Assembly (NCBI GenBank): GCA_019637335.1
Contig: JAHBVV010000012.1
Span: 1 to 64,000 of the forward strand
Length of the DNA: 64,000 nt
Source: Candidatus Hydrogenedentota bacterium
GTDB taxonomy: Bacteria > Hydrogenedentota > Hydrogenedentia > Hydrogenedentales > JAEUWI01
Direction of reading: 5' to 3'
Of the stretch, positions 6,548 through 44,607 are shown one piece after another. The notes beneath the pieces are model-generated. The model was not told the DNA's origin. It saw only the letters and a list, made by a program, of their open reading frames with translations, and searched no databases. Position 1 is the first letter of the stretch, and every line of letters starts with the position of its first letter. Both the position numbers and the translations under genes were made by a program.

Positions 6548-7798
6548 ATGTCTTCGTTGTCTACCCGCCGCACCTTCCTCAAGTCCACGGCCCTGGCGGG
6601 CGCCGCCGTATCGATGACCGCGCGAAGCTATGCCCGCGTGCCCGGAGCAAACGACCGGATTTCCATCGGGATTATTGGATGTGGGCAGCGTGGGGCCCAC
6701 GCGCACATGCCGGGGATTCACACGCACGCCAAGGCGGAAAACGTGGAAATCACCGCCGTGTGCGACCCCTGGCGCCAGAAGCGCGAGGCCGCGGCCGCAA
6801 AATGCAAGGAATGGTATGGCGCCGAGGCGCGCCAGTTCGTCTCGTACCAGGATCTGCTCGCGCTCAACGATGTGGACGCGGTGACGATTGGCTCGTGCGA
6901 CCACCAGCACACGGCGCACCTGGCCGCCGCCGCCGAATCGAAAAAGGATGTGTACATCGAAAAGCCGCTGGGCAAGGATCTGGCCGGCGTCATCAAGGCC
7001 TGCGACGCCGCCGTTTCGAACGGGATCGTGGTGCAAGTCGGCACCCAGCTGCGGAGCATGGGGAGCATGGCCGGCGCGCGCGAGCGCTACCAGACCGGCG
7101 TGCTGGGGAAGGTAAGCCGGATCGAACAGTGCCGCAATGCCTGGCGCCCCTACTGGTACAGCCATATTGCGCCCGTGGAGGAGGCGGACGTGGACTGGAA
7201 CGAGTTCCTGATGGATCTCCCGCCGCAACCGTTCAACGCGGACCGCTACAGCGCCTGGTACGGCTACCGGGAAACCTCCGACGGGCCGATACCGGGCTTC
7301 GCAAGCCACTTCCTCGATCTGGTGCACTACATCACGGGGGCGCGCTTCCCGGTGAGTTGCGTCTGCCAGGGCGGGACCTTCACCTGGAACGATGAACACG
7401 GTTTTACCGCCCCGGATCACGTGCAGGCCACGTGGATCTATCCCGAGGGCTTTCTGGTGAGCTACAGCACCAATTTCGGCAATGGAAGCGGGAATTCCTT
7501 CAAGATTTTCGGGGACCGGGGGGTCCTCGACCTGGTGGACTGGAACGATCCAATGCTGACGGGGGAGGGCGCGGGCCCGCAACAGGCCTGCGTGAGCGAG
7601 CCGGAGCGGGTGGCCTATATCGAGCGCCCCGATCACATGCTGGACTGGCTCCGGTGCATCCGGTCGCGCGAGACCACGCACGCGCCCATCACGGCGGGCT
7701 ACCAGCACGCGGTGGCGGTGCTCATGGCCGTGCAGTCGTACGACACCGGCCGGCGCACCCTCTACGATCCCGAGTCGCGTACGATCCGGGAAGGCTGA
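6548..7798 (+). CDS. Tat-exported Gfo/Idh/MocA oxidoreductase
   Basis: A 416-residue NAD(P)-dependent sugar oxidoreductase. It begins with a twin-arginine signal, 'STRRTFLKS', followed by a hydrophobic stretch. The Rossmann motif 'IGIIGCGQRGAHAH' follows, and 'DVYIEKPLGKD' is the family EKP motif whose Lys takes part in catalysis. Length is typical of the family. The start at 6548 has GGGGAG upstream and places the twin arginines near the N-terminus; a 23-residue upstream extension is rejected. It is first in a cluster with an isomerase-like and an aminotransferase-like protein that also carry Tat signals. Family members oxidise or rearrange sugars with a tightly held nucleotide; the substrate is unknown. 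Confidence 0.92.
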   Translation: MSSLSTRRTFLKSTALAGAAVSMTARSYARVPGANDRISIGIIGCGQRGAHAHMPGIHTHAKAENVEITAVCDPWRQKREAAAAKCKEWYGAEARQFVSYQDLLALNDVDAVTIGSCDHQHTAHLAAAAESKKDVYIEKPLGKDLAGVIKACDAAVSNGIVVQVGTQLRSMGSMAGARERYQTGVLGKVSRIEQCRNAWRPYWYSHIAPVEEADVDWNEFLMDLPPQPFNADRYSAWYGYRETSDGPIPGFASHFLDLVHYITGARFPVSCVCQGGTFTWNDEHGFTAPDHVQATWIYPEGFLVSYSTNFGNGSGNSFKIFGDRGVLDLVDWNDPMLTGEGAGPQQACVSEPERVAYIERPDHMLDWLRCIRSRETTHAPITAGYQHAVAVLMAVQSYDTGRRTLYDPESRTIREG

Positions 7799-7916
7799 TT
7801 CCTCCCCAACACGGGGAGTCCAAACGAAACGTGGGGAAACTGGCGCATGCGGGCGCCGCACAGGCGGCTCCTGAACCGGCGCGCCGTAACACCGGTCATC
7901 CACGGGGAGAATGACC

Positions 7917-8798
7917 ATGGCGTTTTTCTATTCGTCCCGCCCCTCCGGCCTTACCCGAAGACACTTCCTCGGCTGCGCGTCCGCGGCCGCCCTGGCGTTG
8001 CCCGCGCAGCTGGCCGCAGCGGGTGATTCGCCCCCCCGGCGCGCGCTGGCGTGCCGCCTGGCGAGTTATGGCGCCTATGAGGAGGCGGCGTGGACCCACC
8101 TGCCCGCCATCGGCGTTCGCCATATGTTTATGAACGTCCCCGAGCCCGATCAGATTGATGCGGTCGCGGCGCGCCTCGAGGCGCACAAGCTCGCGCCCGT
8201 AGTCATGCGGGGCGCGGCGGATCTCTCCACCCCGGAAAGTATCGGGATTCTTGCCGGGCAACTGGCGATCTGCCGCCGCTTCGGCGTTCGCTACATGTTT
8301 CTCTCGCCGAAGCACGCCGAGGCCCCCAGGGAGGTCGCCTGGGAGCACCTGCGCCGGGCGGGCGACGCGGCGGCGGAGCAGGACGTGATCATCGCGCTGG
8401 AAACGCACCCCGATCTCGGGACCAACGGCGCCGTCCACCTCGAAACGATGCAAGCCGTCGATCACCCCTATGTGCGGGTCAATTTCGACACCGGCAACAT
8501 CACCTACTACAACCGCGACACGGACGCGGTGTCGGAGTTGAAAAAGATCGTGGACTACGTCGCCACGGTGGAGTTCAAGGATCACAACGGCGGCTTCGAG
8601 ACGTGGACTTTCCCGCCCCTGGGGCAGGGCGTGGTGGATTTTCCGGGGGTGCTGGACGTCCTGAACGCTCACGGATACGCCGGCCCGATCACCCTCGAGT
8701 TCGAGGGGACCAAGGGCGTGGAGCTCGATGAAGCCCAGACCCGGCAAGCCATCGAAACCTCGGTCGCCTATGTGCGCAGCCTTGGAGAATTCGACTGA
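7917..8798 (+). CDS. Tat-exported sugar isomerase/epimerase-like TIM barrel
   Basis: A 293-residue protein of the xylose-isomerase-like TIM-barrel family. A Tat motif, 'LTRRHFLG', is near the N-terminus. Family features are 'IIALETHPDLGTNG' with a metal-ligand Glu, 'VRVNFDTGNITYYN' with the conserved Asp, 'VEFKDHNGG' and a late 'ITLEFEG'. The start at 7917 gives GGGGAG seven-base spacing; the ATG at 7911 is two codons upstream and too close to it. The gene follows the oxidoreductase by 118 bases on the same strand. An isomerase or epimerase acting on the product of the neighbouring oxidoreductase is the simplest reading, but this is inference. Confidence 0.85.
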   Translation: MAFFYSSRPSGLTRRHFLGCASAAALALPAQLAAAGDSPPRRALACRLASYGAYEEAAWTHLPAIGVRHMFMNVPEPDQIDAVAARLEAHKLAPVVMRGAADLSTPESIGILAGQLAICRRFGVRYMFLSPKHAEAPREVAWEHLRRAGDAAAEQDVIIALETHPDLGTNGAVHLETMQAVDHPYVRVNFDTGNITYYNRDTDAVSELKKIVDYVATVEFKDHNGGFETWTFPPLGQGVVDFPGVLDVLNAHGYAGPITLEFEGTKGVELDEAQTRQAIETSVAYVRSLGEFD

Positions 8799-8898
8799 CG
8801 CGACGCGCGGCCGCCCGCCCGCGCGGCGCCGGGCCGCCGGATCAACACGGACCGGAGCACCAGCCCCCAGAGGCCCTCCGGCCAGAAGGAACAGAACC

Positions 8899-10233
8899 AT
8901 GCATACCAGCCAGAAACCCGGAACCATCCCCCATGTCACGCGCCGCGGCTTCATGAAAGCGGGCGGCGCGGCTATTGCCGGACTCACCCTCACCGGCGGC
9001 GCCTCCGCGGCCCCGCTCGAAAAGCTCGCCTTGGAAGGCGGCCCGAAGAGCGTGACCGTGGCCGAGGAAATCACCGCCGCGCTGACGCGGTGGCCCCGCT
9101 ACGGCGACGCCGAGAAACAGGCGTTGCACGCGCTGATCGACAACAACAAATTCTATGACGAGCTTCCACTTTTCGAGGACGAGTGGAAAGCGTATACGGG
9201 TTCGCCCTTTGTGAAGGCGCACATGAACGGGTCAAGTGCGCTGACGAGCATGTATTTCGCGCTGGACCTGCCGCCCGGGAGCGAAGTGATGGTCCCGTCC
9301 TACACGTTCTTCTCGGCGTGCCTCGCGATGCGCTTCTCGGGGCTGGTCCCGATCTTCGTGGATATCGACCCGAAAACCGCCTGCTTTGACCTGGAAGATG
9401 CGAAGCGCAAGCTGACACCGCGCACCAAAGCGGTGGAGGTCATGCATTCGTGGGGCCTGCCCTGCGATATGGACCGCATCTGGGAATGGTGCAACGAGAA
9501 GGGCCTGATCACGCTCGAAGACGCCGCGCACGCGCACGGCGCCGCAATGCAGGGCAAGAAGATCGGCACGTGGGGCGACATGGCCATCTTCAGTTTCCAG
9601 ACCACCAAAGTGATGCCTTGCGTGGAGGGCGGCATGGGCATGTACAAGACGCGGGAATTCTTCGAGCGCGCGGCCGCATTCGGCCACTACGAGGACCCGG
9701 TGAAATTCGCGGAGGACAGTCCCGTGCGCGCCTACGAGGGCACGGGCTTCGGCCAGAAGTACCGGATGCACCCCTTCGCGGCCGCCGTGTGCCGCCAGCA
9801 GCTCCAGGCGCTCGACACCACCAACGCCATGGTCGATAAGAACATCCGTGCGTTGAACGATGAGCTCGTGCAGCTCCGCGGGATTACCGAGCCGCATTGC
9901 CGCGAGGACCAGGAGCGCGTCTACTACTACAAGAACATGCTGCTCGTCGATTTCGCGGGCCTCGGCGTGGCGCGCGACAAGGTGCTGGCCGCGCTCAAGG
10001 CCGAGGGCGTGCAGGCGGATGTCTGGGACTACCCCGAACAGCACAAGCTGAAGATCTACAGCGAACCGCAGTGGTGGCATCACCCGCCCACCATCCCGGA
10101 ATCCATGCCCGGCAACGCCTACGTCAACGGAAACCACATCTTTGTGCCCATCTTCTACGGCGAGGCGCCGGAACTGATCGCGCAGTATGTCAATGCCTTC
10201 CAGAAAGTCTGGAGCCAGTTGGACCGGCTGTAG
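8899..10233 (+). CDS. Tat-signal DegT/DnrJ/EryC1/StrS PLP aminotransferase
   Basis: A 444-residue fold-type I PLP enzyme of the sugar aminotransferase family. The catalytic segment is present: 'VPSYTFFSACLAMRF', 'LEDAAHAHGA' with the PLP-binding Asp, and Lys237 in 'FSFQTTKVMPCVEGGMG', the Schiff-base Lys position. The odd feature is a Tat-type N-terminus, 'VTRRGFMKAGG', then a hydrophobic segment ending 'GGASA'. Most family members are cytoplasmic. The start at 8899 has AGAAGGA upstream; the longer frame reaching back into the preceding gene is rejected. The stop codon is the first TAG of a heptamer repeat. It probably acts on a keto-sugar made by the neighbouring oxidoreductase (inference). 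Confidence 0.9.
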   Translation: MHTSQKPGTIPHVTRRGFMKAGGAAIAGLTLTGGASAAPLEKLALEGGPKSVTVAEEITAALTRWPRYGDAEKQALHALIDNNKFYDELPLFEDEWKAYTGSPFVKAHMNGSSALTSMYFALDLPPGSEVMVPSYTFFSACLAMRFSGLVPIFVDIDPKTACFDLEDAKRKLTPRTKAVEVMHSWGLPCDMDRIWEWCNEKGLITLEDAAHAHGAAMQGKKIGTWGDMAIFSFQTTKVMPCVEGGMGMYKTREFFERAAAFGHYEDPVKFAEDSPVRAYEGTGFGQKYRMHPFAAAVCRQQLQALDTTNAMVDKNIRALNDELVQLRGITEPHCREDQERVYYYKNMLLVDFAGLGVARDKVLAALKAEGVQADVWDYPEQHKLKIYSEPQWWHHPPTIPESMPGNAYVNGNHIFVPIFYGEAPELIAQYVNAFQKVWSQLDRL

Positions 10234-10293
10234 GCTTTAGGCTTTAGGCTTTAGGCTTTAGGCTTTAGGCTGTAGGCTGTAGGCTTTAGGCTG
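10231..10293 (+). repeat. Heptamer tandem repeat TAGGCTT, nine units
   Basis: Nine head-to-tail 7-base units, TAGGCTT or TAGGCTG, followed by a broken tenth (TAGGGTA). The first three bases are the stop codon of the aminotransferase. Because the unit is seven bases long, TAG occurs in all three forward frames. The array ends 27 bases before the next start codon. Confidence 0.95.
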
Positions 10294-10320
10294 TAGGGTA
10301 ACTATAGTAAGGATGCTATT

Positions 10321-11670
10321 ATGAAGTTCTTTCACAAAGGTGTTGTGATCTGTCTGGGGGTGGCCGCTTCATGTGTCTTCGCGGCAGCGGCGGACCCGTT
10401 TCAACCGGCGAACCGCATTACGGCGAAAACGTGGAACTCCGGGTTTGCCGATGCGCACGACTCCTACAACAGCATGGGCGCCGCGAGTGACGGCAACGTG
10501 TACTACGCGCTGAGTTCGACGCGCCATGACGTCGGCGCCCAGCTGTACCGCTTTGAGCCGGGCTCCGGAGTCATCACGCATCTCGGCGACCTCACCGAGG
10601 CCTGCGGGGAGAAGGATACAAAGACCCTGGTGCAGGGCAAGAGCCACAACGTGTTCGTGGAGGCGAACGGGAAACTGTACTTCGCGACGCACGCCGGCTA
10701 TTACAGCATCATCGACGGCAAGGAGCAGATGGGCATCCCGCCGGAAGGCTGGAAGCCGTATCCGGGCGGCCACGTGCTCTCCTACGATCTGGCGACGGGC
10801 GCATTCGAGGATCTGGGCATCCCCCTGGCCAACGAAGGCATCCTCACCATGGCGATGGACACGGCCCGCGGCCGCATCTTCGGCATTACCTGGCCGGCGG
10901 GCCATTTCGTCCGCTATGACCTGGCCCAGGGCGCCTGGAAGGACTTCGGCCCCATCTCGGCAAAGGGCGAATCGGGCCAGGGCGCCGAGTACCGGACGCT
11001 GTGCCGCTCTATCGCCGTCGATCCGCGCGACGGTTCCGCCTATTACACCGTCTCCGAGGGCGATATCTTCCGCTACGACCACGCGAAAGACGCCATCGAG
11101 CCCGTAACCGGTGAAAACCTGCGCAAGGACTATTTCGGCCTTTACGACCCCACCTCCCCGGGGCATATGGCCTACAACTGGCGGCAGACCATCTGGAACC
11201 CGGTCGATTCGCAATTCTACGGCGTGCACGGCAACTCGGGCTACCTCTTCCGCTACGATCCAACAGCGAACCGCGTGGTCGTGCTGGATCGCATCACCTC
11301 CGAGGTTTCAAAGCGCAGCGGCATGTTCGATCAGTTCAGCTATGGCTATCTCGGCTTCGAACTCGCGCCGGACGGGCGCACCCTTGTCTACCTGACCGGC
11401 GGCCCGATCTACCAGGACGGGCGGCGCGTGGCCGGGAAGGAATCGACCGCCATGGGCGAGGCGAAGGGACTGGAGAACCTCCACCTGATAACGTGGGACA
11501 TTCCCACGGGCCAGTACCTCGATCACGGCGCGATCTTCTATGAGAACGGCGATCGCCCGCTTTACGTGAACTCGCTCGCCATCGCGAAGGACGGCGCCAT
11601 CTGCTTCCTGGCGCGGATCACCGAGAATGGCCACCTGCGATCGGATCTGGTGACGGTCCGGATACCGTAG
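10321..11670 (+). CDS. Secreted protein, probable beta-propeller
   Basis: A 449-residue protein with a Sec signal peptide (about residues 1-23). It has recurring blade-like strands ending in 'LYRFEPGSG', 'VLSYDLATG', 'FVRYDLAQG', 'IFRYDHAKD' and 'LFRYDPTAN', each followed by a turn, as in beta-propeller proteins of the SMP-30 or quinoprotein style. I do not recognise a named family. AAGGA lies just before the ATG. It is the last gene of the cluster and is followed by a strong terminator. A role as an extracytoplasmic sugar-binding or lactonase-like protein is possible, but no catalytic residues can be assigned. Confidence 0.75.
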   Translation: MKFFHKGVVICLGVAASCVFAAAADPFQPANRITAKTWNSGFADAHDSYNSMGAASDGNVYYALSSTRHDVGAQLYRFEPGSGVITHLGDLTEACGEKDTKTLVQGKSHNVFVEANGKLYFATHAGYYSIIDGKEQMGIPPEGWKPYPGGHVLSYDLATGAFEDLGIPLANEGILTMAMDTARGRIFGITWPAGHFVRYDLAQGAWKDFGPISAKGESGQGAEYRTLCRSIAVDPRDGSAYYTVSEGDIFRYDHAKDAIEPVTGENLRKDYFGLYDPTSPGHMAYNWRQTIWNPVDSQFYGVHGNSGYLFRYDPTANRVVVLDRITSEVSKRSGMFDQFSYGYLGFELAPDGRTLVYLTGGPIYQDGRRVAGKESTAMGEAKGLENLHLITWDIPTGQYLDHGAIFYENGDRPLYVNSLAIAKDGAICFLARITENGHLRSDLVTVRIP

Positions 11671-11688
11671 CAAAACGCTTTGCAGCGG

Positions 11689-17182: not shown

Positions 17183-18517
<1,335 letters not shown>

Positions 18518-22095: not shown

Positions 22096-22192
22096 AGGCA
22101 TACCTGAGAGGATGGCCCTGCCGGCTCGGGTGGTCGCTGGCTGTGCCGGCGTGCGCGGCCCCGCGGTATACTGGCGTCAGGAGGAACAACCC

Positions 22193-23464
22193 ATGGCAAA
22201 TTACCTTTCCCGCCGCACATTTCTGAAGGCAACCGCGGCCGCCCCGCTGATCCTGGCGGGCCGGGCGGGAAGCCAGCCCGCGCCGAGCGAGCAGATCACG
22301 CTCGGGTTCATCGGCACGGGCGGGCATGGCGTCGGCTGGAACCTGAAGTATTTCAGCCAGATTCCCGAGGTGCGCGTGCTGGCGGTGTGCGATGTATTCC
22401 AGGATCGTCGGGAATCCGCGAAGGCGCGGGTCGACGCGCACCACGGCAATGCGGACTGCGCGATGTACAACGATTTCCGCGAGTTGCTGGCGCGCGACGA
22501 TGTTGACGCGGTGGTGATTTCGACGCCGGATCACTGGCACGTGCTCATGTCGGTGATGGCGGCGCGCGCGGGGAAGGATGTCTTCTGCGAAAAGCCGACA
22601 CTGACCATCGAGGAGGGGCAGGCGCTGGTGCGTGTGTTTCGCGAGACGGGCCGCATCTTCCAGGGCGGCATCGAGGACCGTTCCGTGGCGGTGTACCACC
22701 GCATGGCGGAGCTCGTGCGCAATGGCGCGCTGGGCAAGCTGGAGCGCATTCGCGTGGCGCTGCCGCCGGGCGACGCCTTCCCGAAGGAGGAGTCCGCGCC
22801 CGTGCCGGAGGGGCTCGACTACGACCTGTGGCTCGGGCCCGCGCCGTACGCGCCCTACTCGCCCACGCGCCTCGAACCGCAGCAGTGGCGGAACATCTTT
22901 GACTACTCCGGCGGCAAGTTCACCGATTGGGGCGCGCACCTGATGGACACGGCGCAAGTTGCTCTCTTCGAGGAGCACGGCGGCCCGGTGGAGGTCGAGG
23001 GCGTCGGCGACTTCCCGGTGGATTGCATGGCGGACGCGGCGACGACCTACGAATTGAACTACCGCTACGCGAACGGCGTGACAATGGAGGTGAAGTCGGA
23101 CGGCGCGGGCATCGGCTTCTACGGCAGCGAGGGCTGGATCCGGAGCAACGGGTGGCGCGCGGCGATGGAGTCGAGCAGCGAGGAAATCGCGCAACACGTT
23201 TTCCCTCCGGACGCCAACAAGATGTACCCCCTGCCCCCTGGCGAGCACCAGGCCTTTATTGACGGCGTGAAATCGCGGGCGATGCCGTATTACAGCCCGG
23301 CGGACATCCACCGGCTGAGTTCGGCGATGCACATCGGCAATATCGCGATGCGCCTGGGCCGAAAGCTTCAGTGGGATCCCGCCGCGGAGGAATTCCCGGG
23401 GGACGCGGAAGCCAATGCGATGCGCGGGCGCCCCATGCGCGCGCCGTGGACGCTGGACGCCTGA
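22193..23464 (+). CDS. Tat-exported Gfo/Idh/MocA oxidoreductase
   Basis: A 423-residue enzyme with the Tat motif 'SRRTFLKAT'. It has Rossmann 'LGFIGTGGHGVGWN', 'ISTPDHWHVLM' and the EKP motif 'KDVFCEKPTLTIEEG'. AGGAGG lies nine bases before the ATG at 22193, so the longer upstream frame is excluded. It follows the FG-GAP protein by 97 bases and precedes the SDR gene by 103. It differs from the oxidoreductase at 17183 enough that they probably act on different substrates or steps of one pathway (inference). The 'SGGKFTDWGAHLMDTAQ' region is the family's substrate-side His/Asp segment. Confidence 0.92.
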   Translation: MANYLSRRTFLKATAAAPLILAGRAGSQPAPSEQITLGFIGTGGHGVGWNLKYFSQIPEVRVLAVCDVFQDRRESAKARVDAHHGNADCAMYNDFRELLARDDVDAVVISTPDHWHVLMSVMAARAGKDVFCEKPTLTIEEGQALVRVFRETGRIFQGGIEDRSVAVYHRMAELVRNGALGKLERIRVALPPGDAFPKEESAPVPEGLDYDLWLGPAPYAPYSPTRLEPQQWRNIFDYSGGKFTDWGAHLMDTAQVALFEEHGGPVEVEGVGDFPVDCMADAATTYELNYRYANGVTMEVKSDGAGIGFYGSEGWIRSNGWRAAMESSSEEIAQHVFPPDANKMYPLPPGEHQAFIDGVKSRAMPYYSPADIHRLSSAMHIGNIAMRLGRKLQWDPAAEEFPGDAEANAMRGRPMRAPWTLDA

Positions 23465-41769: not shown

Positions 41770-42588
41770 TTAACCGTTCAACAGGTTCAGCGCGCTCTGC
41801 GGCGTAACATTCGCCTGCGCAAGCACGCTCACGCCCGCATTCACGAGGATCTGGTTGCGCGTGAACAGGATCGTCTCCCGCGCGATGTCCGCGTCCCGGA
41901 TCGCGCTCTCCGCCGCCGCCGCGTTCTCTTCCTGGATCGCCAGGGTGTTCACCGTGAATTCCAGGCGGTTCTGGAAGGCCCCAAGCGTGCTGCGAAGTGA
42001 ATTGACGCTCGCAAGCGCCACATCCACGAAGCTCAGCGCCGAGACGGCCCCCGCCGCGGTCGACACGGTGATCCCGCTGATGCGCAGATCCGATGTGCGC
42101 GCCCCCGCAACGCCAACCGTCAGCGTCTGGCTTACATTCGCGCCCGACTGAAGCGTGATCGACTGGTTCGCGCTCAATACCGCGATCCCGTTGAACTGCG
42201 TGTCCAGCGCGATATCCTCAATCTGGTTGAGAAGCTCGCGCACCTCCGTGTTCAACGCCGTGCGGTTGTCCGTGCTCTGCGTGCCGTTCGCCGCCTGGAT
42301 CGCAAGCTCCCGGATGCGCTGGAGAATATTCGTCGTCTCGCTCAGCGCGCCCTCCGCCGTCTGCACGAGACTGATGCCATCCTGGGCGTTCCGCTGCGCG
42401 GCCTGCGATCCCCGAACCTGCGACCGGAAACCCTCGGCAATCGCAAGGCCCGCGGCATCATCGCTGGCGCGGTTGATGCGCAGGCCGCTGCTCAAGCGCT
42501 CCAGGCTCTTCGTGAGCGCGCGCGTGGAACGATCCAGCGCCCGGCCCGTATTCAGGGCCGGCACGTTCGTATTGATACGAAGTCCCAT
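41770..42588 (-). CDS. Flagellin (copy 3, D0/D1 only)
   Basis: A 272-residue flagellin with only the conserved N- and C-terminal D0/D1 regions. It starts 'MGLRINTNVPALNTGRALDR', with 'LSSGLRINRASDDAAGLAIA' near residue 50 and a C-terminus containing 'ILVNAGVSVLAQANV'. There is no variable D2/D3 domain. AGGAGG precedes the ATG. It is the most diverged of the three tandem copies. The three genes are separated by spacers of 173 and 214 bases that contain strong hairpins. Confidence 0.95.
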   Translation of the reverse strand: MGLRINTNVPALNTGRALDRSTRALTKSLERLSSGLRINRASDDAAGLAIAEGFRSQVRGSQAAQRNAQDGISLVQTAEGALSETTNILQRIRELAIQAANGTQSTDNRTALNTEVRELLNQIEDIALDTQFNGIAVLSANQSITLQSGANVSQTLTVGVAGARTSDLRISGITVSTAAGAVSALSFVDVALASVNSLRSTLGAFQNRLEFTVNTLAIQEENAAAAESAIRDADIARETILFTRNQILVNAGVSVLAQANVTPQSALNLLNG

Positions 42589-42684
42589 GGTCTTACCTCC
42601 TGAGTCTCCCGGACGGGTATCCCTAACCGGCCGGGCGGGGCATTAATCTAACGTCGCGCACTCCTTTCCCTGCAATTCACCCAG

Positions 42685-42709
42685 CCCCGGCGCCGCGCGG
42701 GCGCCGGGG
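42685..42709 (-). other. GC hairpin after the second flagellin gene
   Basis: CCCCGGCGCC-GCGCG-GGCGCCGGGG, a perfect 10-bp stem. There is no T-tract, so it may protect or process mRNA rather than terminate transcription. Confidence 0.7.
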
Positions 42710-42761
42710 CGATGACATCATCCGATTTCGCGGGGGCGGCTCGCCGGCTCGCCCCCCGCGC

Positions 42762-43577
42762 CTACCCCAGCAGCTGGAGCGCCGTCTGCGGCACAACGTT
42801 GGACTGCGCCAACACCGACGTGCCCGCGCTCACCAGGATCTGGTTACGCGTAAACAGGATCGTTTCGCGCGCAATATCCGCATCCCGGATTGCGCTCTCC
42901 GAAGCCGCCGAGTTCTCCTCCTGGATCGCCAGCGTGTTGATCGTGAACTCGAGACGGTTCTGGAACGCGCCCAGCGTGCTCCGGAGCGAGTTCACGCTCC
43001 GGATCGCGTTGTCCACCGTGCTGATTGCCGCAACCGCCAGCGACGCAACCGAAAGCGTCACCGCGCTCACGCCGATATCCGCCGCGCGCGCGCCGCTCAC
43101 CGACACCGTCAGCGTCTGGCTCACATACGCGCCCGCCTGCAACGTCACCGTCTGCGCGCTGCTCAGCACGCTGATGCCGTTGAATTGCGTGTCCGTGGCG
43201 ATGTTGTTGATCTGGCCGATCAGCTCGTTGACTTCCCGCGTGAGCGCAAGCCGGTTGTCCGTGCTCTGCGTGCCGTTGGCCGCCTGAACCGCCAACTCCC
43301 GGATGCGCTGGAGAATGTTGGTCGTCTGGCTCAGCGCGCCTTCCGCCGTCTGCACAAGGCTGACGCCGTCCTGCGCGTTCCGCTGTGCAACCTGCGATCC
43401 GCGCACCACCGAACGGAAGGTCTCCGCAATCGCGAGGCCCGCCGCATCATCCGCCGCGCGGTTGATCCGGAGGCCGCTCGAAAGCCGTTCCAGGCTGCGG
43501 TTCAGGTCCAGGGTCGAGCGCTGCAATGTCCGCGCCGCGTTCAGCGACGACACGTTGGTATTAATTCGAAGTCCCAT
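42762..43577 (-). CDS. Flagellin (copy 2, D0/D1 only)
   Basis: A 271-residue flagellin nearly identical in plan to the copy at 43792. It has N-terminal 'MGLRINTNVSSLNAARTL', 'LSSGLRINRAADDAAGLAIA', and C-terminal 'ILVSAGTSVLAQSNV'. The ATG at 43577 is preferred over a TTG two codons upstream because GGAGG is nine bases away. High similarity to its neighbour indicates a recent tandem duplication, or homogenisation by recombination. Confidence 0.95.
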   Translation of the reverse strand: MGLRINTNVSSLNAARTLQRSTLDLNRSLERLSSGLRINRAADDAAGLAIAETFRSVVRGSQVAQRNAQDGVSLVQTAEGALSQTTNILQRIRELAVQAANGTQSTDNRLALTREVNELIGQINNIATDTQFNGISVLSSAQTVTLQAGAYVSQTLTVSVSGARAADIGVSAVTLSVASLAVAAISTVDNAIRSVNSLRSTLGAFQNRLEFTINTLAIQEENSAASESAIRDADIARETILFTRNQILVSAGTSVLAQSNVVPQTALQLLG

Positions 43578-43733
43578 AGTCAATTTCCTCCATGAGTGGC
43601 CAGAGGGATTCCCTTACCCTCCGTATTTGATGAGGTGTTTCCAGTGCGATACTACCTGGGCGGACGCGACGCGACTCGCGTTTCGCCCCGAACCGGGGTT
43701 GCCGTCCTCCTTTCCGTTCTTTAAGAGCCCTGC

Positions 43734-43775
43734 GGGGCGGCCGGCGGGAAATCCCTTTCCGGGTCCGGCCGCCCC
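43734..43775 (-). other. GC hairpin after the first flagellin gene
   Basis: GGGGCGGCCGG (43734-43744) pairs perfectly with CCGGCCGCCCC (43765-43775). There is no T-tract on the coding strand. Confidence 0.7.
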
Positions 43776-43791
43776 GGCGTTATTGCGTCCT

Positions 43792-44607
43792 TTATCCGAG
43801 CAACTGCAGCGCCGTCTGCGGCACCACATTCGCCTGCGCAAGCACCGAGGTGCCCGCATTCACCAGAATTTGATTCCGGGTGAATCGAATCGTTTCCTGC
43901 GCGATATCCGCATCCCGGATCGCGCTCTCCGAAGAAGCCGAATTCTCCTCCTGGATCGCCAGCGTGCTGATCGTGAACTCGAGCCGGTTCTGGAACGCGC
44001 CAAGCGTGCTCCGGAGCGTGTTCACGCTGCGGATCGCGTTATCAATCGTGCTGATCGCCGCCACCGCCAGCGACGCCACCGAAAGCGTCACCGCGCTCAC
44101 GCCGATGTCCGCCGCGCGCGCGCCGCTCACCGACACCGTCAGCGTCTGGCTCACATACGCCCCAGACTGCAGCGTAACCGTCTGCGCGCTGCTCAACACG
44201 CTGATGCCGTTGAACTGCGTGTCCTTCGCAATATCGTTGATCTGGCCGATCAGTTCATTCACCTCGCGCGTAAGCGCCAGGCGGTTGTCCGTGCTCTGCG
44301 TGCCGTTCGCGGCCTGTACCGCAAGCTCCCGGATGCGCTGCAAGATATTCGTCGTTTCGCTCAGCGCGCCCTCCGCCGTCTGCACCAGGCTGATGCCATC
44401 CTGCGAGTTCCGCTGCGCGACCTGCGCACCGCGAACGACCGAACGAAAGCTCTCGGCAATCGCCAGGCCCGCCGCGTCATCGGCCGCCCGGTTGATCCGG
44501 AGGCCGCTCGAAAGCCGCTCCAGGCTGCGGTTCAAATCCAGCGTCGACCGGCGAAGTACCCGCGCCGTGTTCAACGCCGAAACATTGGTGTTGATGCGAA
44601 GTCCCAT
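43792..44607 (-). CDS. Flagellin (copy 1, promoter-proximal)
   Basis: A 271-residue flagellin, first of three in the direction of transcription. It starts 'MGLRINTNVSALNTARVL' and has the conserved 'SSGLRINRAADDAAGLAIAE' and C-terminal 'ILVNAGTSVLAQANV' segments. It lacks the central domain. GGAGG is eight bases before the ATG. A sigma-28-type promoter lies about 440 bases upstream. It is probably exported by the flagellar type III system and assembled into the filament. No other flagellar structural gene is in the window. Confidence 0.95.
   Translation of the reverse strand: MGLRINTNVSALNTARVLRRSTLDLNRSLERLSSGLRINRAADDAAGLAIAESFRSVVRGAQVAQRNSQDGISLVQTAEGALSETTNILQRIRELAVQAANGTQSTDNRLALTREVNELIGQINDIAKDTQFNGISVLSSAQTVTLQSGAYVSQTLTVSVSGARAADIGVSAVTLSVASLAVAAISTIDNAIRSVNTLRSTLGAFQNRLEFTISTLAIQEENSASSESAIRDADIAQETIRFTRNQILVNAGTSVLAQANVVPQTALQLLG

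What the first reader, a model, noticed from the sequence alone, without database searches (positions are those of the whole stretch)
6548..10233. Tat-exported oxidoreductase, isomerase and PLP aminotransferase in one row
Three successive genes carry twin-arginine signals, and the third is a DegT/StrS-type aminotransferase with an intact Lys237. Oxidoreductase, isomerase and aminotransferase would make an amino-sugar, but this chemistry is normally cytoplasmic and needs amino donors. An exported PLP enzyme would be folded with its cofactor before transport, which suits the Tat route.
Basis: partly seen in the sequence, partly recalled or inferred. Interest (0 to 1): 0.57.

Follow-up and report, generated by a model that had tools for sequence, protein, structure and literature searches.

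The report
Exported aminotransferase paired with sugar isomerase
This stretch encodes a vitamin-B6-type sugar aminotransferase that is built to be shipped out of the cytoplasm ready-folded, next to a sugar isomerase that is also exported; many environmental bacteria carry the pair, which suggests that some amino-sugar chemistry usually placed inside the cell takes place outside the inner membrane.

Summary
At 6548-10233 three same-strand genes encode a Gfo/Idh/MocA oxidoreductase, a xylose-isomerase-like TIM barrel and a DegT/StrS aminotransferase. Each has a readable twin-arginine N-terminus, and Lys237 of the aminotransferase is intact. Only the first passes NCBI's TAT model; the aminotransferase misses by 0.3 bits. 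Comparison settles much of the doubt. The aminotransferase belongs to a distinct subfamily in Hydrogenedentota, Verrucomicrobiota, Acidobacteriota, Planctomycetota and Omnitrophota. Its N-terminus reads RRx[hydrophobic] in all 105 distinct sequences classified (99 also pass my hydrophobicity rule). The TIM-barrel partner has an export signal in all 30 distinct sequences, usually Sec or lipoprotein rather than Tat: independent evidence for the same compartment. In 60 related genomes every TIM carrier (32) has the aminotransferase; 28 of 32 lie side by side, often with a sodium/solute symporter. The oxidoreductase is not part of the conserved row: none of 31 other genomes has it on the same contig, although it co-occurs genome-wide. 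No known nucleotide-sugar subfamily model fits. I read it as extracytoplasmic keto-/amino-sugar interconversion; substrate and direction are unknown. Tat-exported PLP transaminases are known (PvdN, PtaA), so this is a new variant of a known kind.

The parts
6548..7798 (+). Gfo/Idh/MocA oxidoreductase with twin-arginine N-terminus; present in the window's row but not in the conserved row elsewhere
   Evidence: Pfam PF01408 4.9e-18; TIGR01409 17.5 bits, cut-off 16.7; best solved relative DgpA 9.7e-12; orthologues of 50% or more in 37 of the other 59 genomes, none on a DegT contig
7911..8798 (+). Xylose-isomerase/epimerase-like TIM barrel with twin-arginine N-terminus (no TIGR01409 hit)
   Evidence: PF01261 8.3e-27; model pLDDT 89.4 matches Art22, IolE and D-tagatose 3-epimerase, Z 25-28; partner of the DegT in 28 of 32 carriers
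8899..10233 (+). DegT/DnrJ/EryC1/StrS-type PLP aminotransferase with twin-arginine N-terminus, intact Lys237, Asp208, Ser232
   Evidence: PF01041 9.5e-68; Lys237 in 39 of 39; model pLDDT 92.5 matches DegT structures, Z 41-45
8899..9006 (+). Tat-type signal region of the aminotransferase (residues 1-36, likely cleaved near GASA/AP); cleavage not shown
   Evidence: sequence; model of low confidence here apart from the helix around 15-21; RR invariant in 39 of 39
10321..11670 (+). Secreted beta-propeller-like protein, conserved neighbour in the window-type version of the locus
   Evidence: DUF6923 27.2 bits, cut-off 27; found beside DegT in G000, G010, G033 and within 6 kb in 11 of 80 loci

Best explanation
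A subfamily of DegT/StrS aminotransferases is folded with PLP in the cytoplasm and exported through Tat. It works outside the cytoplasmic membrane with an exported TIM-barrel isomerase/epimerase on a small keto- or amino-sugar (or cyclitol), probably not nucleotide-bound; the product is then taken up, in most Hydrogenedentota carriers by the adjacent sodium/solute symporter. In the window an exported Gfo/Idh/MocA dehydrogenase sits in front and could supply the keto-sugar, so that the row works like an extracytoplasmic counterpart of NtdC (dehydrogenase) plus NtdA (aminotransferase). Shown here: gene identity, intact PLP residues, universal Tat-type N-termini, export signals on the partner, linkage. 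Inferred: actual export, activity, substrate class, direction (salvage or deamination slightly favoured because of the symporter), amino donor or acceptor.
For: Twin arginines in 105 of 105 distinct members by eye, 99 by rule, across five phyla by record title. Partner TIM barrel has an export signal in 30 of 30 distinct sequences: 5 Tat, the rest Sec or lipoprotein-like. TIM in 32 of 60 genomes, DegT in 35, no TIM without DegT (Fisher 6e-14; within family f5 alone 8 of 8 against 0 of 9). Strong symporter matches in 28 genomes, 23 beside DegT. PLP residues invariant. DegT fold with high confidence. TatC present. Precedents: PvdN and PtaA carry PLP out by Tat (PMC6206403); NtdC and NtdA pair a dehydrogenase with an aminotransferase on a non-nucleotide sugar (PMC8788734).
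Against: The window protein scores 0.3 bits under the TAT cut-off and only 22 of 39 members hit that model at E 0.05. No fractionation or activity data. The nearest Verrucomicrobia and Bryobacterales relatives lack the TIM barrel nearby (63 of 80 loci lack it within 6 kb). A free amino donor outside the membrane is not accounted for. In the TIM barrel the usual metal-ligand His is Glu221 by alignment to 3tva, so isomerase activity is not certain. Fisher tests ignore relatedness of the genomes.
Confidence: 0.6

Rival explanations
1. The twin-arginine segment is a conserved N-terminal feature without export; the aminotransferase stays cytoplasmic and makes a nucleotide amino-sugar as most DegT enzymes do.
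For: DegT enzymes are normally cytoplasmic; the window protein is just under the TAT model cut-off; fold matches are nucleotide-sugar enzymes among others.
Against: RR plus hydrophobic stretch in all members but not in 8 of 9 other DegT of the same genome; partner enzyme has Sec or lipoprotein signals; nucleotide-sugar equivalogs far below cut-off.
Confidence: 0.1
2. Exported, but a tailoring or biosynthetic enzyme that aminates an envelope or secreted glycan or metabolite outside the membrane, in the manner of PtaA acting on pyoverdine.
For: PtaA and PvdN precedent; ceramidase-like hydrolases and a beta-propeller as neighbours are not transport proteins.
Against: A symporter next door in most Hydrogenedentota carriers fits uptake better; I saw no recurring glycosyltransferase or polymer genes among the neighbour clusters.
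Confidence: 0.2
3. Exported catabolic glycoside module: Gfo oxidises the 3-OH of a glycoside and the TIM barrel cleaves it (DgpA/DgpC-like), and the aminotransferase acts on a minor product or is a moonlighting PLP protein.
For: Only solved relative of the Gfo at 1e-10 is DgpA; the TIM profile weakly hits DgpC1, 1.5e-5; DgpA is Gfo/Idh/MocA and DgpC isomerase-like (PMC8563793).
Against: Gfo is not linked to the pair elsewhere; a DgpB-type subunit was not looked for; the aminotransferase is the invariant member of the module.
Confidence: 0.1

Closest known systems
PvdN and PtaA of Pseudomonas (periplasmic PLP enzymes of pyoverdine tailoring)
   Same: Tat export together with bound PLP; PLP chemistry outside the cytoplasm (PMC6206403, passages)
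   Different: Act on the pyoverdine side chain; here the DegT/StrS family with a sugar-isomerase partner; sequence relation to PvdN/PtaA was not tested
NtdA/NtdC (KabA/KabC), kanosamine synthesis
   Same: Dehydrogenase plus PLP aminotransferase on a non-nucleotide sugar (PMC8788734, passages); NtdA is hit at 1.1e-26 by the DegT profile
   Different: The ntd pathway acts on glucose-6-phosphate, intracellularly as far as I recall; here Tat N-termini, a TIM barrel and no phosphatase seen
Fic25 (8gyh) and inosose aminotransferases BtrR/RbmB
   Same: Best sequence hit 4.4e-62 with a shared N-terminal LA-x-GGP segment; fold Z 44
   Different: About 30% identity; the Fic25 chain aligns from residue 2, so no Tat segment in it; different substrates
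DgpA/DgpC C-glycoside cleavage
   Same: Gfo followed by an isomerase-like TIM barrel (PMC8563793, passages)
   Different: Weak similarity only; no aminotransferase in the described reaction
Glucose-fructose oxidoreductase of Zymomonas (recalled)
   Same: Tat-exported Gfo-family enzyme with tightly held cofactor
   Different: Stands alone; recalled, not tested

Membership tests
DegT/DnrJ/EryC1/StrS aminotransferases | Pfam PF01041 over gathering score | tested here: met
   229.5 bits, cut-off 19.8
DegT/DnrJ/EryC1/StrS aminotransferases | Schiff-base lysine and PLP residues (Lys237, Asp208, Ser232; roles recalled) | tested here: met
   39 of 39 members; a subfamily-specific change is Lys287 in place of the Asn found in 7 of 9 other DegT of the genome
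DegT/DnrJ/EryC1/StrS aminotransferases | Fold | tested here: met
   Z 41-45 to solved members
Named nucleotide-sugar aminotransferase equivalogs (DesI, PseC, ArnB, WecE) | NCBIfam curated cut-off | tested here: not met
   best 162.3 bits against 650
Tat substrates | Twin-arginine motif with hydrophobic stretch, conserved in orthologues | tested here: met
   6 of 105 fail my hydrophobicity threshold though RR is present
Tat substrates | TIGR01409 cut-off | tested here: inconclusive
   gene 1 met, gene 3 16.4 of 16.7, gene 2 no hit; 22 of 39 members at E 0.05
Tat substrates | TatC-dependent export and cleavage | not testable with these tools
   needs experiment; TatC gene present
Xylose isomerase-like TIM barrels | Pfam PF01261 and fold | tested here: met
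   94.9 bits, cut-off 31.1; Z up to 28
Xylose isomerase-like TIM barrels | Metal ligands Glu-Asp-His-Glu (recalled) | tested here: inconclusive
   E164, D193 and E263/E265 invariant; the His position holds Glu221 by alignment to 3tva
Glycoside 3-dehydrogenase BT_2158 family (gene 1) | NCBIfam cut-off | tested here: not met
   71 bits against 750
PtaA/PvdN | Sequence homology | not tested
   no comparison made; likeness is functional only

The most novel reading that the evidence does not exclude
A widespread extracytoplasmic amino-sugar pathway in uncultured PVC-related and acidobacterial lineages: a Tat-exported dehydrogenase, isomerase and DegT aminotransferase interconvert free sugars and amino-sugars outside the inner membrane before symport, with PLP delivered preloaded by Tat.
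Probability: 0.3. Interest if true: 0.72.

Novelty: new variant of a known kind. Interest (0 to 1): 0.52.

Why it matters
DegT/StrS enzymes are regarded as cytoplasmic makers of nucleotide amino-sugars. A subfamily exported as a whole, in at least five phyla and tied to an exported isomerase and a symporter, would place amino-sugar transamination outside the cell's inner membrane. It raises a testable question: where amino donors come from there and how pyridoxamine phosphate is turned back to PLP. It also gives a handle on carbohydrate use in uncultured bacteria. My searches for print on exported DegT enzymes listed nothing on it; I read listings only and the library is partial.

Tried and rejected
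Considered and rejected: (1) a conserved three-gene operon: the oxidoreductase is on another contig in all 31 other genomes that carry both. (2) Chance RR: rejected by conservation. (3) A dehydratase of the ColD type, which lacks the lysine (recalled): Lys237 is invariant. (4) A UDP-keto-sugar pathway: equivalog models far below cut-off. (5) Assigning the symporter's substrate: the best solved relative, 5nv9, is labelled only as a putative sodium:solute symporter (a sialic acid symporter as I recall), too distant to use. The propeller has no solved relative by sequence at E 0.01. Promoter and terminator scans gave nothing above shuffles; the only + strand terminator-like hairpin is after the propeller gene, at 11687. 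The A2-A6 profile comparison only showed that the two sets are the same family.

Dropped rows and limits: the 80 loci are the best 80 of 551 relatives, so they lean to the closest subfamily. In one search duplicates were collapsed and one DegT and one TIM without a usable start were left out; L112's TIM was called Tat by the rule but reads as a lipoprotein and is counted so here. The tree left out L092, L141 and matches under 600 bits; its outgroup has long branches, so the root is not trusted. Structure alignments held 39 of the DegT and 17 of the TIM sequences found.
Full report
WHAT IS THERE. The window lies in an unnamed 7.16 Mb genome (G000, contig C12). Three + strand genes run from 6548 to 10233 with gaps of 112 and 100 bases, and a fourth, a secreted beta-propeller-like protein, follows at 10321. 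Pfam puts the three over cut-off as GFO_IDH_MocA, AP_endonuc_2 and DegT_DnrJ_EryC1. The N-termini read TRRTFLK, TRRHFLG and TRRGFMK, each followed by an alanine/leucine-rich stretch. By NCBI's TAT model only gene 1 passes (17.5 bits, cut-off 16.7); the aminotransferase has 16.4 and the TIM barrel none. On the window alone the Tat claim for genes 2 and 3 would be moderate. Eight of 43 called genes of the window score as Tat-like by my rule, one of them clearly false, so Tat-type starts are common in this genome.

IS THE EXPORT SIGNAL REAL? I looked at relatives. Against one genome per species, the DegT protein has a close family: 71-73% identity in G010 and G033, 80% over a partial match in G014, then about 45-55% in many more genomes of the order. 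A profile scan of named genomes gave 80 loci from records titled Verrucomicrobia/Kiritimatiellae, Acidobacteria/Bryobacterales, Planctomycetota, Hydrogenedentota and Omnitrophota. Two are cut by a contig end; all 78 others show RR in front of a hydrophobic stretch. Taking all loci together and collapsing duplicates, 105 distinct DegT sequences were classified: 99 pass a Tat rule that I wrote (RRx[hydrophobic] followed by a 13-residue window of mean Kyte-Doolittle value over 0.9). The six others also read RRxF but fall under that threshold. TIGR01409 hits 22 of 39 members at E 0.05. Of nine other DegT-type proteins examined from the same genome, only one has a Tat-type start, and it is another member of the wider group with an LA-x-DGGPKAV segment.

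An independent line comes from the TIM-barrel partner. Thirty distinct sequences were classified: five have Tat-type starts (window, G010, G033, G014, G047). The remaining 25 have a plain Sec-type or lipoprotein-type signal, including L112, which the rule called Tat but which reads as a lipoprotein. None lacks a signal. Two enzymes whose genes travel together and which carry signals for different export routes are hard to explain unless the destination matters. The genome has one TatC.

IS THE ROW CONSERVED? In 60 related genomes the DegT subfamily (E 1e-90) is in 35 and the TIM barrel (E 1e-40) in 32, always once. No genome has the TIM barrel without the DegT (Fisher 6e-14; within family f5 alone 8 of 8 against 0 of 9, 4e-5; relatedness is not corrected for). 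In 28 of 32 the two are within about 2 kb; in G020, G025, G049 and G051 they are on different contigs. A sodium:solute symporter (PF00474) is the next member: strong matches in 28 genomes, 23 of them beside the DegT. The window-type version (G000, G010, G033) has no symporter there and has the propeller instead. Among the 80 named loci, within 6 kb: neutral-ceramidase-like protein 22, TIM barrel 17, symporter 15, Gfo 12, propeller 11, further DegT-type gene 9. So most loci, including the nearest Verrucomicrobia and Bryobacterales relatives, do not have the TIM barrel next door.

The oxidoreductase is different. Orthologues of 50% identity or more exist in 38 of 60 genomes, and in none of the 31 other genomes that also carry the DegT do they lie on the same contig. 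They do co-occur (32 of 35 DegT carriers against 6 of 25 non-carriers, 8e-8; within f5 p = 0.015). A functional link is therefore possible, but the row of three is a local arrangement. The window's own genus and family (G001-G006) have neither DegT subfamily member nor TIM barrel, and its Gfo, DegT and propeller genes have their nearest kin in G010, G033 or, for DegT over a partial match, G014; for the TIM barrel G010 and G015 are tied. This suggests horizontal acquisition, not proved. The tree places the window sequence among Verrucomicrobia, Bryobacterales and G010/G033/G014 sequences, apart from the genome's second copy, which falls with Hydrogenedentota sequences (quick method, long outgroup branches).

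IS IT AN ACTIVE PLP ENZYME? Asp208, Ser232, Gln234 and Lys237 are invariant in 39 of 39 aligned members; His211 is H in 36 and Q in 3. The subfamily differs from the genome's other DegT proteins by an invariant Lys287 where 7 of 9 others have Asn, by Pro292, and by a Trp393 segment near the C-terminus. The predicted model (pLDDT 92.5) matches solved DegT enzymes with Z 41-45, Pcryo_0638 and Fic25 at the top and tied. By sequence the best solved relative is 8gyh, i.e. Fic25 (4.4e-62), then 8y96, AHBA synthase and inosose aminotransferases. No nucleotide-sugar equivalog model comes near its cut-off. The TIM barrel model (pLDDT 89.4) matches Art22, IolE and D-tagatose 3-epimerase, Z 25-28. Glu164, Asp193 and Glu263/Glu265 are invariant, but the position that holds His in 3tva holds Glu221, so isomerase activity is likely rather than certain.

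HOW IT MAY WORK. The aminotransferase is folded with PLP inside, exported by Tat, and acts with the TIM barrel on a free keto- or amino-sugar or cyclitol outside the membrane; the symporter brings the product in. In the window the Gfo enzyme may make the keto-sugar. The nearest logic is NtdC plus NtdA, a dehydrogenase and an aminotransferase acting on glucose-6-phosphate (PMC8788734, passages). For PLP export the precedent is PvdN and PtaA, for which the review states that PLP is bound before transport and that PvdN stalls in the membrane when its lysine is mutated (PMC6206403, passages). A DgpA/DgpC-like glycoside cleavage (PMC8563793, passages) is a rival for the first two genes, on weak similarity. 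Direction, donor and substrate are not shown.

VERDICT. The three-gene amino-sugar row is partly right: the conserved unit is aminotransferase plus isomerase, often with a symporter. Export of PLP transaminases by Tat is known, so I file this as a new variant of a known kind.

Noticed in passing
window 10226-10297: About ten copies of a 7-base repeat, GGCTTTA, between the aminotransferase and propeller genes.
   Followed up: no
window 41770-44607, - strand: Three flagellin-like genes in tandem with near-identical N-termini (named by eye).
   Followed up: no
window 17183-18517 and 22151-23464, + strand: Two further Gfo/Idh/MocA-type proteins with twin-arginine starts; both are closest to the BT_2158 glycoside 3-dehydrogenase model but under its cut-off.
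   Followed up: partly
L007 (G000 C11:174505-175641): A third DegT-type protein with a Tat-type start in the same genome, about 32% identical to the window one; similar matches occur in G001, G002, G003 and G005.
   Followed up: partly
L068, L070, L071, L075, L080, L081, L083, L142: A neutral-ceramidase-like gene lies directly upstream of the exported DegT in many Verrucomicrobia and Bryobacterales; in L112 a related protein lies nearby whose later part looked sialidase-like to me by eye.
   Followed up: no
L101, L106, L052, L053: A second exported DegT paralogue closes the cluster DegT-TIM-symporter-DegT.
   Followed up: partly
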